From: Nigrospora sphaerica
Lineage: Eukaryota; Ascomycota; Sordariomycetes; Amphisphaeriales; Apiosporaceae
DNA length: 64,000 nucleotides
Assembly: GCA_018287875.1 (NCBI GenBank)
Contig: JAGVVL010000002.1
Span: 8,556,001-8,620,000 of the forward strand
Direction of reading: 5' to 3'
In this document: in pieces, positions 1 through 33,436 of the stretch
Position numbering within the stretch: the first letter of the stretch is position 1
Layout of the letters: each line of letters starts with the position of its first letter
Notes under the pieces: model-generated
Databases searched by the model: none
What the model saw: only the letters and a program-made list of their open reading frames with translations
Told to the model about the DNA's origin: nothing
Position numbers and translations under genes: made by a program

Positions 1-356
1 TCCAAAGCTTTGGGACTCGGAAGGGGCAAAATATCTTAGCTGGACCCTCACTGACGATTCAAAAACGAAGCCTCACCGTCACTGAGGCGCATGGCGCTGC
101 AAGGGAGGCGGAGGCCGCGGATTATATATGGGCGAGAATGGGGATACGAAGCGCCTAGGTCTATCTGGTGAACTTGTGCGTACTTCCTTAGCCACTTGCC
201 CTCTTTGCCGTGAATACTGGGACGCTTTGCTTCGTCCCAGCAACGGCGCGCGAACCCCCACCCTGTCCTTGAGCCCCCCCCCCCACACATTCCCCTCTCT
301 TCTCCGCCGATAGGTGTTTTTCTGCCCACAGCCCTCCCTCCCCTGGCCTCACCGCC

Positions 357-983
357 ATGGCCTCACCTCTACCGCGGTCCAGTCTCACATCGATCCGGGC
401 GTCGTGCGACCGGTGCCGGGCCAAGAAGCTGGGCTGCGCGATCTCGATGGAGCGGACCGCGCGTCGGTGACCGGCAGTGCGTGCGCTGCCTATGCGCCCA
501 GGCCTGCTGCGTCTTCGACCACGCCCAGAATACGCGCCGTTACCGCACCCCAAGTCCGCCGCCGCCGCCAAGAAGCCGCGCCCGCTGGCCAGGCCCCTCG
601 AGCCCGGCCCCCGCGCCGGCGACGCCCTCCACATGGACCCCCCGGGGTGTTGTTGCCGCCCATTTTCGACGGCGCGTCGGTGGCTGGGTTCTCCCCCGCG
701 GGCCTGCCGTTCGCTTCCCCCGCCGCCTGGATCGACAGTTTCGGCCTCGGCGCCGCCGATGACTGCAAGGTGCCGGCTTCGGCTTCCCCGACCTCTGCGC
801 GACGATGCCCTCATCTTCGAGTGGCTCGTGGAATCGTGTCCACTGTTCGATTTCTCCGACGGCGGCGTGGATGCTGCGCCCTGGTCGCCCATGGACTCCT
901 GCGAGTTTTGGAGGAGTTTGCACTTGCCCCAGCCATCAGGGCCATCCACCGGCCAAATGAAGATCCAGATTGATGACACTTGA
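357..983 (+). pseudogene. Broken Zn2Cys6 (AflR-like) transcription factor
   Basis: A Zn2Cys6 DNA-binding domain is recognisable but split over frames. The first half (C-x2-C-x6-C, reading CDRCRAKKLGC) starts at the ATG at 357 and hits a stop at about 468. The second half (QCVRC...ACC, again C-x2-C-x6-C) is in another frame from 475. Downstream the plausible protein moves frame again near 540 (Lys/Pro/Ala-rich linker), near 650 (reading PPIFDGASVAG) and near 800 (reading LIFEWLVESCPLFDF), ending in a Trp/Leu-rich tail. No intron with usable signals and a realistic length explains the shifts. The order of parts fits small AflR-type regulators, which bind CGG/TCG-type half sites. It sits at the left edge of the cluster and is the only regulator-like sequence in it. 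Sequencing indels cannot be excluded, but the neighbouring enzyme genes are intact. Confidence 0.7.
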
Positions 984-1690
984 GGGGGCAAAGGAGGCAG
1001 ACTGCCAGGCGCGGATATGCAAGAGGCCACTGTTGTTTGCTCTACGAAAGACTTGTGCTTGTGTTTTGTCCTGTTATAGCGCCGGGGATATTAGTATAAT
1101 CTCAGGAGGCTTTTTACGATGAGGGTGGATTATGTTATGGAGCACAAAGATGCGGCCCCCTCTAAGAAATGGTCAACGGACCAGAACCCATCTTGATACA
1201 GGGAACTGGAAAAGATACGAGAGACGACTGCTGCAACGCCAAATGGTGCCATCATATGCACCTTGCCTTATAATCATGTTGTGGATGTCAGGAATGTATC
1301 GTCTGAATGCTGTTCTTTGCCCGATGCCGATATACTGTAGTCCAGACGTCTCGCCTCCAATCATATATGATACACGTTAGTGGGATGTCGGAAAAAAGGC
1401 ACAATACGCTAGGGCGCCGTTACGACAAGCTGAAAACTACTTTGTATACCGCCCTGTTCAGCAAAGCACAGCCAGGAAAGGTCAGTGGGTTTGGCCCGGG
1501 GTTGGGGAGGGCAATGCGAAGCTTGCTGCCCAGACCCCGGCAATCATATTTGGAACCCCGCAATTACGGAGTCGCCCACCTATAAAATCTTCCCCGGATA
1601 GGTCATCCTGGCTCTTTTGGGTCCTATCTTTTCTTTACTTTTGCCCTCATTTTCAGCCCGACGTGCTGTGGAACGTTCGAACTCGGCACA
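984..1690. other. Intergenic, promoter side of P450-A
   Basis: No gene is supported. A TATA-like element lies at 1581-1587 and a pyrimidine-rich stretch leads to the P450-A start codon. Confidence 0.6.
1581..1587 (+). promoter_or_regulatory. Candidate TATA box of P450-A
   Basis: TATAAAA lies 104 bp upstream of the P450-A ATG, followed by a CT-rich stretch typical of filamentous fungal promoters. Position and sequence only. Confidence 0.45.
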
Positions 1691-31200: not shown

Positions 31201-32249
31201 AGTAAAACGGCCATTAAAGTAATGATGACGCTAGCCACGGAAGTCTCGCCGCGGAGTAGGAAAGCGCTGCCCACCCAAAAGGATAGGGCATAGTTAAGAC
31301 TGGCGATAAACATGATGCCGGCAAGCATGAGGGCGCCGACGGCCTTCACCCTGAACCCGTGCCTCTCCGCCTCGACGAGGGCGTCGTCGTACATATGGGA
31401 GAGCCGATCCTGCGTACCGAACGCGATAGTGTTGCGGATGGCGCCGAGCACGTCGCCGGCGATGACGCCGGCCTCGGACATGGCCTGGATCCACGGCACG
31501 CTGTACTTGGCGAGGAAGACGGAGGAGACGCCCATTATGGCAAGTAGGGCGACGAGCGTGGACAGGAGCACCAGGGTCAGCTTCCAGTAGGTGGCGAAGC
31601 TGATGGCGAAGGCGGAGACGAAGGTGGCGAGGGCGGTGAGCACGAGGGCGACCTTCTCGGAGATGCCGGCGCGGATCTGGTCGACGCCGGCCGTGATGCA
31701 GGTGGCGACCTCGCCGCTGCTGAGGCGCGCGTCGAAGAAGCCGACGTTCTGGCGCAGGCAGCTGCGCAGGTAGTGGCGGCGGATCTGGTTGCTGAGCCGC
31801 TCGCCCGTGTAGATGAAGCCGGCCATGGCGACGTAGATGGCGACGAACTCGCCGATGGCGAGGTAGACGAAGTTGAGCACGAGCCCGTTGACCTGCGCCG
31901 AGAAGGCGTCGCGCTGTGCCGCCGTCGAGCCCGCGCCCGAGTAGCCCTGGAACGTGCCCTGCAGCCGCCCGAAGAAGAGGATCATGAGCGGCAGCGCCGC
32001 GCCGCCGGCGATGGCGCACACGGCGCTCGCCACCATGATGGCCACGTCCGACGCCGTCGCGTACCGGTACAGCGCCCGCACACCGACGTCGACGTCGGGC
32101 GTGGCCGTCTGCCGCTCCAGCACCTCGTTCTCGCTGGCGCCACGGGGGCCGGCGAACTTAGACGCCAGGGCATCGTCGTTGGGCTTCTCGGCCGTCGTTA
32201 GGATCCTAGCCAGCGCGATTTCGTCACTCTCGGTGTGTCCCACGGCCAT
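28242..32249 (-). CDS. ABC transporter, full-length ABCB (MDR/P-glycoprotein-type) exporter
   Basis: Proposed exons (descending): 32249-30536, 30460-29937 and 29867-28242, giving 1,287 residues with two TMD-NBD halves. NBD1: Walker A GASGSGKSS, signature LSGGQKQR, Walker B ILLLDEATSALD (formed across intron 1) and switch VAHRLAT. NBD2: Walker A GSSGCGKST, signature LSGGQKQR, Walker B VLLLDEATSSLD and switch VAHKLST. Each half has about six hydrophobic segments. All ATPase motifs are intact, so it should export a hydrophobic molecule from the plasma membrane, most simply the cluster product, for self-protection or secretion. It is at the right edge of the cluster and convergent with DMATS-2. 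Related proteins also act as general drug pumps, so the cluster role is inference from position. Confidence 0.92.
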
Positions 32250-33436
32250 GGTGATGGGCGAGCGGTGTCGGGGGAGCGGGTGTGTGGCACAGAGAAATGA
32301 GATTGTACGGAGGCATAAAGGAAACGATAAGCGCGTAAATGCAGCGGATGGGCCCAGCGCTGTTGGTATACTTGTCGACAGCCCTGTGGCTGACGTCCCC
32401 GGGGTTTGCGGCCTGGACGCAGGGGCGTTACAATCTCTTGGACACGACCCAGGCTAGGGGGCGAAGGGGCTGTCCGGTGTCCGAAGCCCCGAGCTTTCTG
32501 TATCCATTGCTGCATACCCTGACTATGTGGAGTACGGTTGCAATACGTATACTGTCGATGAACCTAGCTTTCCTTCATCCTTGTTTGCTATGGGGCCCGT
32601 GACTGGGGTCCGCCCTCGTCACTAGCCAACTGGCCTCTGATCCCAATACAAGTTTTCCGACCCGACTACGCTCCGCCTGGGATCTACACCCAGAACCTTA
32701 AGTCCTAACGAGCTGTTACCTATGGACGTTGGTGACCCCCCTGTCCCACAGAGCACGGCTCCATCGTTTACCCGTCTCCCGCCGCGCTCCCGGACGCTGC
32801 CTAGGCGATGAGGTACGCAATTCGGGGAAGGTGGAAAGGAATTACAGGGATAGACACGTGAGGGAGGCCAAGCGCCCTGGTAGTAAGTACGGTTATACGA
32901 GGAAAATGAATACTACTCAGTGACGTGTTTACAGTGGGGCTTCTTCCCTTTCACCTTATTCAGCCTTTCGTACACTCCGACACTCTTTTCTACCATTCAT
33001 TATCCTTGTTTTCAAGAAATAGACTAAATATTGTAACTGACCTAGCGCCGTTGACTTTTCAGCTTCTTAGTATGCGCACTACCACTCATTTCGTCGTTTC
33101 CACGGCCGTTACGTTATCAGGGACTCGTTTACTACAGGAACCAACAATAGTAAACATCAAAATCTAAAAGAAGGGAGATTGTTTAAATGCTTCTCGTTTT
33201 AATTTATATAATCTTAAATCTAATTTAATAAGCAGAAATAATCGTATAGTTTATTACGATATAACTCGGTTAAAACATTATAACTAGTTTGGAATTTTCC
33301 TCCTTCATCTCCGTTCGCACATCTTGGTGGCCCAATACAGGTCTGACAACACCTTCAGCCCTTATACATTGATGCACCCTGAGTCTGCATTGCGTCGGCC
33401 AGGCGGGGATGGAGACTGAAGCGGCCCGCGGCGCGC
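32250..33436. other. Intergenic, right boundary of the biosynthetic cluster
   Basis: Contains the ABC gene promoter and the downstream region of the first LysM gene. The part from about 33,170 to 33,290 is strongly AT-rich. No gene recognised. Confidence 0.6.

What the first reader, a model, noticed from the sequence alone, without database searches (positions are those of the whole stretch)
1..32250. Contiguous cluster predicted to make a prenylated, methylated terpenoid glycoside (fusicoccane-like logic)
Seen: an intact chimeric terpene synthase together with four P450s, a TauD-type dioxygenase, an O-methyltransferase, a Caps_synth-type glycosyltransferase, two DMATS prenyltransferases and an ABCB exporter within 32 kb. 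Known: fusicoccin and brassicicene pathways use a fusion diterpene synthase, P450s, a 2-oxoglutarate dioxygenase and a methyltransferase, and fusicoccin adds a glucosyltransferase and a DMATS-family sugar O-prenyltransferase (PaPT). Inferred: this locus makes a related glycoside. A single contiguous set with two prenyltransferases and no acetyltransferase would be a distinct pathway, perhaps closer to cotylenin-type sugars carrying a C5 unit.
Basis: partly seen in the sequence, partly recalled or inferred. Interest (0 to 1): 0.92.

Follow-up and report, generated by a model that had tools for sequence, protein, structure and literature searches.

The report
Fusicoccin-type gene cluster, two prenyltransferases
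A fungal chromosome carries, side by side, eleven intact genes of the fusicoccin kind that should build a sugar-bearing, prenylated diterpene, a new variant of a known family of plant-hormone-like compounds with an unexplained second prenyltransferase.

Summary
Window 1691-32249 holds eleven intact gene models: a chimeric fusicoccadiene-type synthase, four P450s, a TauD dioxygenase, an O-methyltransferase, a Caps_synth glycosyltransferase, two DMATS prenyltransferases and an ABCB transporter. The fusicoccane reading holds: the synthase is 58% identical to PaFS (68% in the cyclase domain) and lies in a supported clade with PaFS and a Pseudocercospora (brassicicene-type) synthase, away from ophiobolin-type synthases. 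DMATS1 is 51.5% identical to a Diaporthe protein named O-glucose prenyltransferase. Relatives of the glycosyltransferase and dioxygenase share contigs with such synthases in several fungi. Contiguity alone does not make it distinct: a contiguous fusicoccin-like cluster is published for Colletotrichum higginsianum (PMC5576322, passages). What is distinctive is DMATS2, a separate prenyltransferase clade whose Apiospora kogelbergensis member is listed with the synthase's contig length, and the lack of any detected acetyltransferase or short-chain dehydrogenase. Whether the aglycone is fusicoccin- or cotylenol-type is undecided. New variant of a known kind; product uncharacterised.

The parts
357..983 (+). 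Regulator-like remnant: two halves of a Zn2Cys6-type cysteine pattern in different frames, with no room seen for an intron; looks broken (or an assembly error). Membership in the cluster is a guess.
   Evidence: cysteine spacing; meaning of the motif recalled; Pfam found nothing on the two pieces given apart
1691..3648 (+). P450a, 542 aa, 6 exons; 35% identical to P450b
5104..6642 (+). O-methyltransferase, 421 aa, 5 exons (Methyltransf_2)
8063..9931 (+). P450b, 514 aa, 6 exons
10432..11646 (-). Caps_synth-type glycosyltransferase, 404 aa, single exon; over the part searched 77% to Apiospora kogelbergensis, 64-65% to two Diaporthe
12939..15131 (-). P450c, 545 aa, 8 exons; its closest scored paralogue in the genome sits beside a PaFS-like cyclase on another contig
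15359..17152 (-). P450d, 506 aa, 5 exons
18024..20633 (+). Chimeric fusicoccadiene-type synthase (cyclase + prenyl diphosphate synthase), 706 aa, 9 exons
21392..22800 (-). TauD/TfdA-type 2-oxoglutarate dioxygenase, 387 aa, 5 exons; HMD at 155, H352 with R twelve residues on
23855..25177 (+). DMATS1, 440 aa, single exon; O-glucose-prenyltransferase-like (51.5% to Diaporthe sp. PMI_573)
26752..28059 (+). DMATS2, 435 aa, single exon; separate clade (75% to Apiospora kogelbergensis, 41% to the Diaporthe enzyme)
28242..32249 (-). ABCB-type full transporter, 1287 aa, 3 exons (two introns of the first automatic model rejected)

Best explanation
An intact, self-contained fusicoccane glycoside pathway. 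The chimeric synthase makes GGPP and cyclises it to fusicocca-2,10(14)-diene. P450s hydroxylate C8 and C16 and, later, C9; the TauD enzyme sets the ring-A oxidation state; the O-methyltransferase caps O16; the Caps_synth enzyme puts glucose on O9; DMATS1 adds a reverse-prenyl ether to the glucose; DMATS2 adds a second C5 unit at another position of the sugar or the aglycone; the ABCB pump exports the product. Shown: gene content, intact active-site motifs, and closest relatives of synthase, TauD, GT and both DMATS. Inferred from the fusicoccin pathway (PMC3411640): each reaction and its position. Guessed: the acceptor of DMATS2, and which P450 does what.
For: Synthase: PDB best hits are fusicoccadiene synthase (911 bits), next family 612; 58% to PaFS over its length; in the cyclase domain 68.5% to PaFS, 53% to the Pseudocercospora fijiensis protein that I take for BscA, 25% to an Aspergillus ophiobolin F synthase; starred clade of 15 of 31 rows with these two fusicoccadiene-type enzymes, in a quick tree (SH-aLRT only) made from 29 of 71 hits. 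DMATS1: sister clade to the group of the Diaporthe O-glucose prenyltransferase (83/90, not starred). GT and TauD: starred clades with Diaporthe, Gnomoniopsis, Colletotrichum, Neoarthrinium, Pyricularia (quick trees, 21 of 23 GT hits and 23 of 25 TauD hits). Co-location from locus tags: Apiospora PG999_001413 (TauD)/_001414 (synthase), Gnomoniopsis N0V93_007811/_007814/_007816, Talaromyces verruculosus ZTR_07520/_07521. No second close copy of GT or TauD in this genome: next matches 31-47% and 31%. Fusicoccin enzymes for the steps: PMC3411640.
Against: No product, transcript or enzyme data. The four P450s and the methyltransferase were not compared with the fusicoccin enzymes (no sequences at hand). 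No SDR found, although fusicoccin uses one after its dioxygenase. The neighbouring regulator-like gene looks broken, so the cluster may be silent. No inverted promoter triplet above chance. The name 'O-glucose prenyltransferase' of the Diaporthe protein is a database name, not a test. Listed contig lengths of synthase, TauD and GT differ in Neoarthrinium moseri and Pyricularia oryzae, and the GT of Diaporthe sp. PMI_573 differs from its synthase; different strains or assemblies may explain it.
Confidence: 0.85

Rival explanations
1. Fusicoccin-type product lacking the two acetyl groups: the TauD enzyme oxidises C16 with double-bond shift, an unclustered reductase restores the alcohol, and the fourth P450 hydroxylates C12 or C19.
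For: TauD is 67% identical to Diaporthe amygdali N8I77_004304 and in one starred clade of nine with it; the dioxygenase listed with a BscA-like synthase in Corynespora falls just outside; DMATS1 is like the enzyme named O-glucose prenyltransferase.
Against: No SDR found, which fusicoccin uses for that reduction (PMC3411640); it was not shown that N8I77_004304 is the fusicoccin dioxygenase Orf2.
Confidence: 0.45
2. Cotylenin-type product: the TauD enzyme gives the 3-hydroxy aglycone as in brassicicene I, a P450 hydroxylates C9 (cotylenol), and GT, DMATS and a P450 build a C5-bearing sugar.
For: Four P450s, no acetyltransferase and no SDR found; cotylenol was made with the brassicicene enzymes abnABCDE plus the C9 P450 Orf7 (PMC12302409); two prenyltransferases.
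Against: Dioxygenase phylogeny; only one methyltransferase, though cotylenin A is recalled to carry a second methyl on the sugar; the searches listed no cotylenin cluster to compare.
Confidence: 0.35
3. DMATS2 belongs to another pathway (an aromatic prenyltransferase that happens to lie here) and the product carries one C5 unit.
For: DMATS2 is only 38% like DMATS1; 18 columns are fixed for different residues between its clade of 7 and 11 DMATS1/Diaporthe-side rows.
Against: It is closer to the O-glucose family (38-41%) than the four other DMATS of this genome that were compared are (24-27% to DMATS1); together they form one starred group of 19; its Apiospora relative is listed with the synthase's contig length.
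Confidence: 0.2
4. The cyclase makes a sesterterpene or a different 5-8-5 diterpene.
For: Few active-site residues are thought to steer chimeric terpene synthases (PMC8307374, passages).
Against: Inside the clade that holds PaFS and the P. fijiensis synthase; both rows named ophiobolin F synthase are outside.
Confidence: 0.05

Closest known systems
Fusicoccin A clusters of Phomopsis/Diaporthe amygdali (PMC3411640, PMC9409727)
   Same: Chimeric synthase, 2-oxoglutarate dioxygenase, P450s, methyltransferase, glycosyltransferase, glucose O-prenyltransferase
   Different: There two loci, 13 genes: five P450s, two acetyltransferases, one SDR, one prenyltransferase, no transporter in the lists read. 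Here one locus, four P450s, no acetyltransferase or SDR found, two DMATS, an ABCB gene
Colletotrichum higginsianum cluster 46 (PMC5576322, passages)
   Different: Said to hold nearly all the D. amygdali genes; the figure legend mentions an acetyltransferase (figure not seen); a second DMATS is not mentioned in the passages read
Uncharacterised Apiospora kogelbergensis locus (PG999_001413/001414 and contig mates)
   Same: Named nearest relatives: synthase 72%, TauD 75%, GT 77%, DMATS2 75%
   Different: No DMATS1 relative under this species' name in the 17 hits; gene order and P450s not seen
Brassicicene clusters (Alternaria brassicicola, Pseudocercospora fijiensis)
   Same: Same first step and dioxygenase/methyltransferase/P450 logic (PMC8951520 passages, PMC12302409)
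   Different: No glycosyltransferase or DMATS described in what was read; P. fijiensis synthase 44% identical
Cotylenins (Cladosporium sp. 501-7W; cotylenins E and J also Penicillium sp. DT10, PMC8951520 passages)
   Same: Fusicoccane glycosides; C5-bearing sugar (recalled); no acetyltransferase needed (recalled)
   Different: No cluster listed by the searches, so no gene comparison possible

Membership tests
PaFS-type fusicoccadiene synthase | Fusion of class I cyclase and prenyl diphosphate synthase with DDxxD, NSE and two PT aspartate motifs | tested here: met
PaFS-type fusicoccadiene synthase | Places with fusicoccadiene synthases rather than sesterterpene synthases | tested here: met
   starred clade holding PaFS and the P. 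fijiensis synthase (taken for BscA)
PaFS-type fusicoccadiene synthase | Forms fusicocca-2,10(14)-diene from GGPP | not testable with these tools
   needs expression and GC-MS
Fusicoccin-type gene cluster | Synthase, TauD, P450s, methyltransferase, GT and glucose O-prenyltransferase relatives together | tested here: met
   P450s and methyltransferase only at family level
Fusicoccin-type gene cluster | Two acetyltransferases (19-O and 3'-O) | tested here: not met
   none found in the locus (gene models, Pfam on part of them, motifs); so not filed as a fusicoccin A cluster
Fusicoccin-type gene cluster | SDR acting after the dioxygenase | tested here: not met
   no model and no TGxxxGxG motif in open frames of 60 aa or more, window plus 30 kb (no positive control); an unclustered enzyme is not excluded
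Glucose O-prenyltransferase (PaPT) family, DMATS1 | Groups with the Diaporthe O-glucose prenyltransferase | tested here: met
   (51.5%; branch 83/90, not starred)
Glucose O-prenyltransferase (PaPT) family, DMATS1 | Reverse O-prenylation of glucose | not testable with these tools
   enzyme assay needed
Glucose O-prenyltransferase (PaPT) family, DMATS2 | Groups with the Diaporthe enzyme rather than with other DMATS | tested here: inconclusive
   inside the starred 19-row group but in its own clade, joined to a long branch; only four other DMATS, all of this genome, served as outgroup
Cotylenin pathway | 3-hydroxylating dioxygenase and C9 P450 | not testable with these tools
   sequence does not tell regiochemistry
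Sesterterpene chimeric synthases | Cyclase groups with ophiobolin F synthases | tested here: not met

The most novel reading that the evidence does not exclude
DMATS2 and its relatives (7 of the 19 rows of the glucose-prenyltransferase group) are a second, undescribed class of fusicoccane prenyltransferase, born by duplication in the O-glucose family and re-aimed at another hydroxyl, so that this cluster makes doubly prenylated, or C5-bridged cotylenin-like, fusicoccane glycosides from one locus.
Probability: 0.4. Interest if true: 0.6.

Novelty: new variant of a known kind. Interest (0 to 1): 0.43.

Why it matters
Fusicoccanes stabilise 14-3-3 protein complexes and serve as plant-physiology tools and drug leads; the Cladosporium cotylenin producer no longer proliferates (PMC3411640, PMC12302409). 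A compact single-locus glycoside pathway without acetyltransferases would be a ready enzyme source, and DMATS2 could be a new sugar- or terpene-prenylating catalyst.

Tried and rejected
Rejected: sesterterpene synthase; contiguity as the novelty; two introns of the first ABCB model and the first linker intron of the synthase model; more cluster genes to the left (30 kb, nine models, five of them scanned: MED4, O-fucosyltransferase, rhodanese, one weak below cut-off, one without match); a shared inverted promoter triplet (574 motifs, best z 4.0; 20 shuffled sets reach 4.0 on average and 5.0 at most). PDB relatives of DMATS1 and TauD were too distant to help. A tblastn step printed nothing and was not used. 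Structure prediction was not used: no reference model would have told the acceptor of DMATS2. P450 regiochemistry was not assigned because no fusicoccin P450 sequence was at hand. Passages of PMC12369201 (Neoarthrinium genomes) gave no mention of fusicoccanes in its main text.
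Full report
What was checked. The window is C12:8556001-8620000 of a 51.6-Mb genome in 33 contigs. A small ab initio gene finder trained on the window, corrected by hand for the TauD gene, P450c, the synthase linker and ABCB, gives eleven intact models between 1691 and 32249. 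Order and strands: P450a, OMT, P450b (+); GT, P450c, P450d (-); synthase (+); TauD (-); DMATS1, DMATS2 (+); ABCB (-).

Borders. Of nine gene models in the 30 kb to the left, five were scanned: MED4, O-fucosyltransferase, rhodanese, one with only a weak match below cut-off, one without match. None looks biosynthetic. To the right come two LysM proteins and a GH18 chitinase-type gene. No acetyltransferase or SDR was found: no gene model, and no SDR glycine motif, BAHD DFGWG motif or MBOAT-like motif in open frames of 60 residues or more of window plus 30 kb. The HxxxDG pattern gave 20 scattered matches, which I read as chance or as parts of known genes.

Backbone. The best PDB matches of the synthase (earlier 674-aa model) are full-length fusicoccadiene synthase chains at 897-911 bits; stellatatriene synthase follows at 612. 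Among 71 database hits the best is Apiospora kogelbergensis PG999_001414 (72%), and PaFS is at 58%. In the cyclase domain it is 81% to Apiospora, 68.5% to PaFS, 53% to a Pseudocercospora fijiensis synthase and 25% to an ophiobolin F synthase. That this P. fijiensis protein (MYCFIDRAFT_132843) is BscA is my reading, not a tool result. A quick tree of 31 rows (29 of the 71 hits, the window and one other synthase of this genome) has a starred clade of 15 that holds PaFS, the P. fijiensis enzyme and the window enzyme; both rows named ophiobolin F synthase are outside. That PaFS and the Alternaria and Pseudocercospora enzymes are fusicoccadiene synthases is from PMC3411640 and PMC12302409. Fusicocca-2,10(14)-diene is therefore the expected product, by bracketing.

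Prenyltransferases. A search with an alignment of both DMATS gave 17 hits (only the 7999 candidates sharing most words were scored). DMATS1 is 93% to an unnamed ENA protein, 69-75% to three others, and 51.5% to P0083, named O-glucose prenyltransferase of Diaporthe sp. PMI_573; DMATS2 is 70-75% to six proteins including one of A. kogelbergensis and 41% to P0083. In the tree (17 of 17 hits, both window proteins, four other DMATS loci of this genome) the 19 rows of this group are separated by a starred branch from the four others. DMATS1 with four relatives is sister to the five-row group of P0083 at 83/90; P0081 (53% to DMATS1) stays outside both. DMATS2 with six others is a starred clade joined to a long branch, so its exact place is unsure. 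The residues at the diphosphate-binding and acid positions of FgaPT2 (positions recalled, aligned) are the same in both: E87, R102, K201, Y203, R270, K272, Y274, K357, Y359 in DMATS1 numbering. Between 11 rows on the DMATS1/Diaporthe side (P0081 included, P0088 left out) and the 7 of the DMATS2 clade, 18 columns are fixed for different residues and 64 are the same in all rows with a letter; position 205, two residues from Y203, is I or L on one side and N in all seven of the other. Both enzymes look active; a different acceptor for DMATS2 is inference. That PaPT prenylates fusicoccin P to fusicoccin J is from PMC7253389 (passages).

Tailoring. Identities over the parts searched: GT 82-84% to three unnamed Logan proteins, 77% A. 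kogelbergensis, 64-65% two Diaporthe, 69% C. higginsianum; TauD 75% A. kogelbergensis (PG999_001413, the tag next to the synthase), 72% Gnomoniopsis, 67% D. amygdali. In quick trees (TauD 23 of 25 hits, GT 21 of 23) TauD pairs with Apiospora, starred; in the GT tree the smallest starred group is the window with two unnamed Logan proteins, and Apiospora is in the next, of five. Both lie in starred clades with Diaporthe, Gnomoniopsis, Colletotrichum, Neoarthrinium and Pyricularia. Equal contig lengths are listed for synthase, DMATS2, TauD and GT of A. kogelbergensis; synthase, TauD and GT of Gnomoniopsis; synthase and GT of Rhynchosporium, Rutstroemia, Talaromyces verruculosus and D. helianthi; synthase and TauD of Macrophomina and Corynespora; TauD and GT of C. 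higginsianum; synthase and prenyltransferase of Diaporthe sp. PMI_573. Against this, the GT of Diaporthe sp. PMI_573, and synthase, TauD and GT of Neoarthrinium moseri and of Pyricularia oryzae, are listed with different contig lengths. Equal length is strong but indirect evidence of one contig. P450c's nearest paralogue among the candidates scored (80 of 221) is 39% identical over 548 aligned columns and divergent from a stand-alone PaFS-like cyclase domain (40-56%) at C1:5479.5-5483.2 kb, which makes P450c the likeliest to act on the hydrocarbon; compare the two-gene tadA/tadB fusicoccane cluster (PMC9551204, part 1 of 3 read).

Comparison with what is known. Fusicoccin A: two loci, 13 genes (PMC3411640, outline and parts 1 and 2 of 5 read; PMC9409727, passages). 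Steps there: P450s at C8 and C16, dioxygenase and SDR at C16, P450 at C9, GT with UDP-glucose, P450 at C12, 16-O-methylation, reverse prenylation of the 6'-OH of glucose, P450 at C19, acetylations. The window has counterparts at family level for all but one P450, the SDR and the acetyltransferases, plus a second DMATS and a pump. A contiguous fusicoccin-like cluster is in print for C. higginsianum, up-regulated at the switch to necrotrophy (PMC5576322, passages). PMC12302409 (part 1 of 2) made cotylenol with five brassicicene genes and the C9 P450. In this library (CC-licensed PMC) the searches list no paper titled or abstracted as a cotylenin cluster, and those none on a fusicoccane cluster in Apiospora; most subscription papers are not held.

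Fusicoccin-type or cotylenin-type. Against each other stand the dioxygenase tree (with D. amygdali) and the lack of SDR and acetyltransferase genes. I put 0.45 on a fusicoccin-type aglycone, 0.35 on a cotylenol-type one.

Organism. From the rDNA spacer on C25 against Apiospora/Nigrospora spacers recalled from memory, and the kinship with A. kogelbergensis, probably Apiosporaceae; not tested against a database.

Verdict. A genuine, intact, uncharacterised fusicoccane-glycoside cluster; new variant of a known kind, the second prenyltransferase being the one open and interesting part.

Noticed in passing
window 357-983 (+): Zn2Cys6-type cysteine halves in different frames without room seen for an intron: a regulator-like gene that looks broken beside otherwise intact genes, or a local assembly error.
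   Followed up: partly
G000 C1:5479549-5483237 (L027, L028): Stand-alone PaFS-like cyclase domain (40-56% to the window's) divergent from a P450 39% identical to P450c; no prenyl diphosphate synthase match within the 20 kb read. Possibly a two-gene fusicoccane unit.
   Followed up: partly
G000 C9:62865-65051 (L003, L020): A second full-length chimeric synthase, 31% identical, 748-aa open frame, falling outside the fusicoccadiene clade.
   Followed up: partly
window 33437-34608, 36092-36667 and about 39828-42579: Two LysM proteins and a GH18 chitinase-type gene (its start not modelled) right of the cluster.
   Followed up: partly
window about 46400-64000: G+C falls to 47-55% and the gene finder reports no model beyond 46377.
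   Followed up: no
G000 C3, C18, C27 (and C4): The same short P450 and synthase matches recur at identical scores on C3, C18 and C27, and the DMATS on C4 (broken by a stop) groups closest with that on C18: duplicated, perhaps subtelomeric, stretches.
   Followed up: no
P0116 (Curvularia kusanoi): A TauD dioxygenase and a Methyltransf_2 domain in one 677-aa predicted protein; fusion or annotation error.
   Followed up: no
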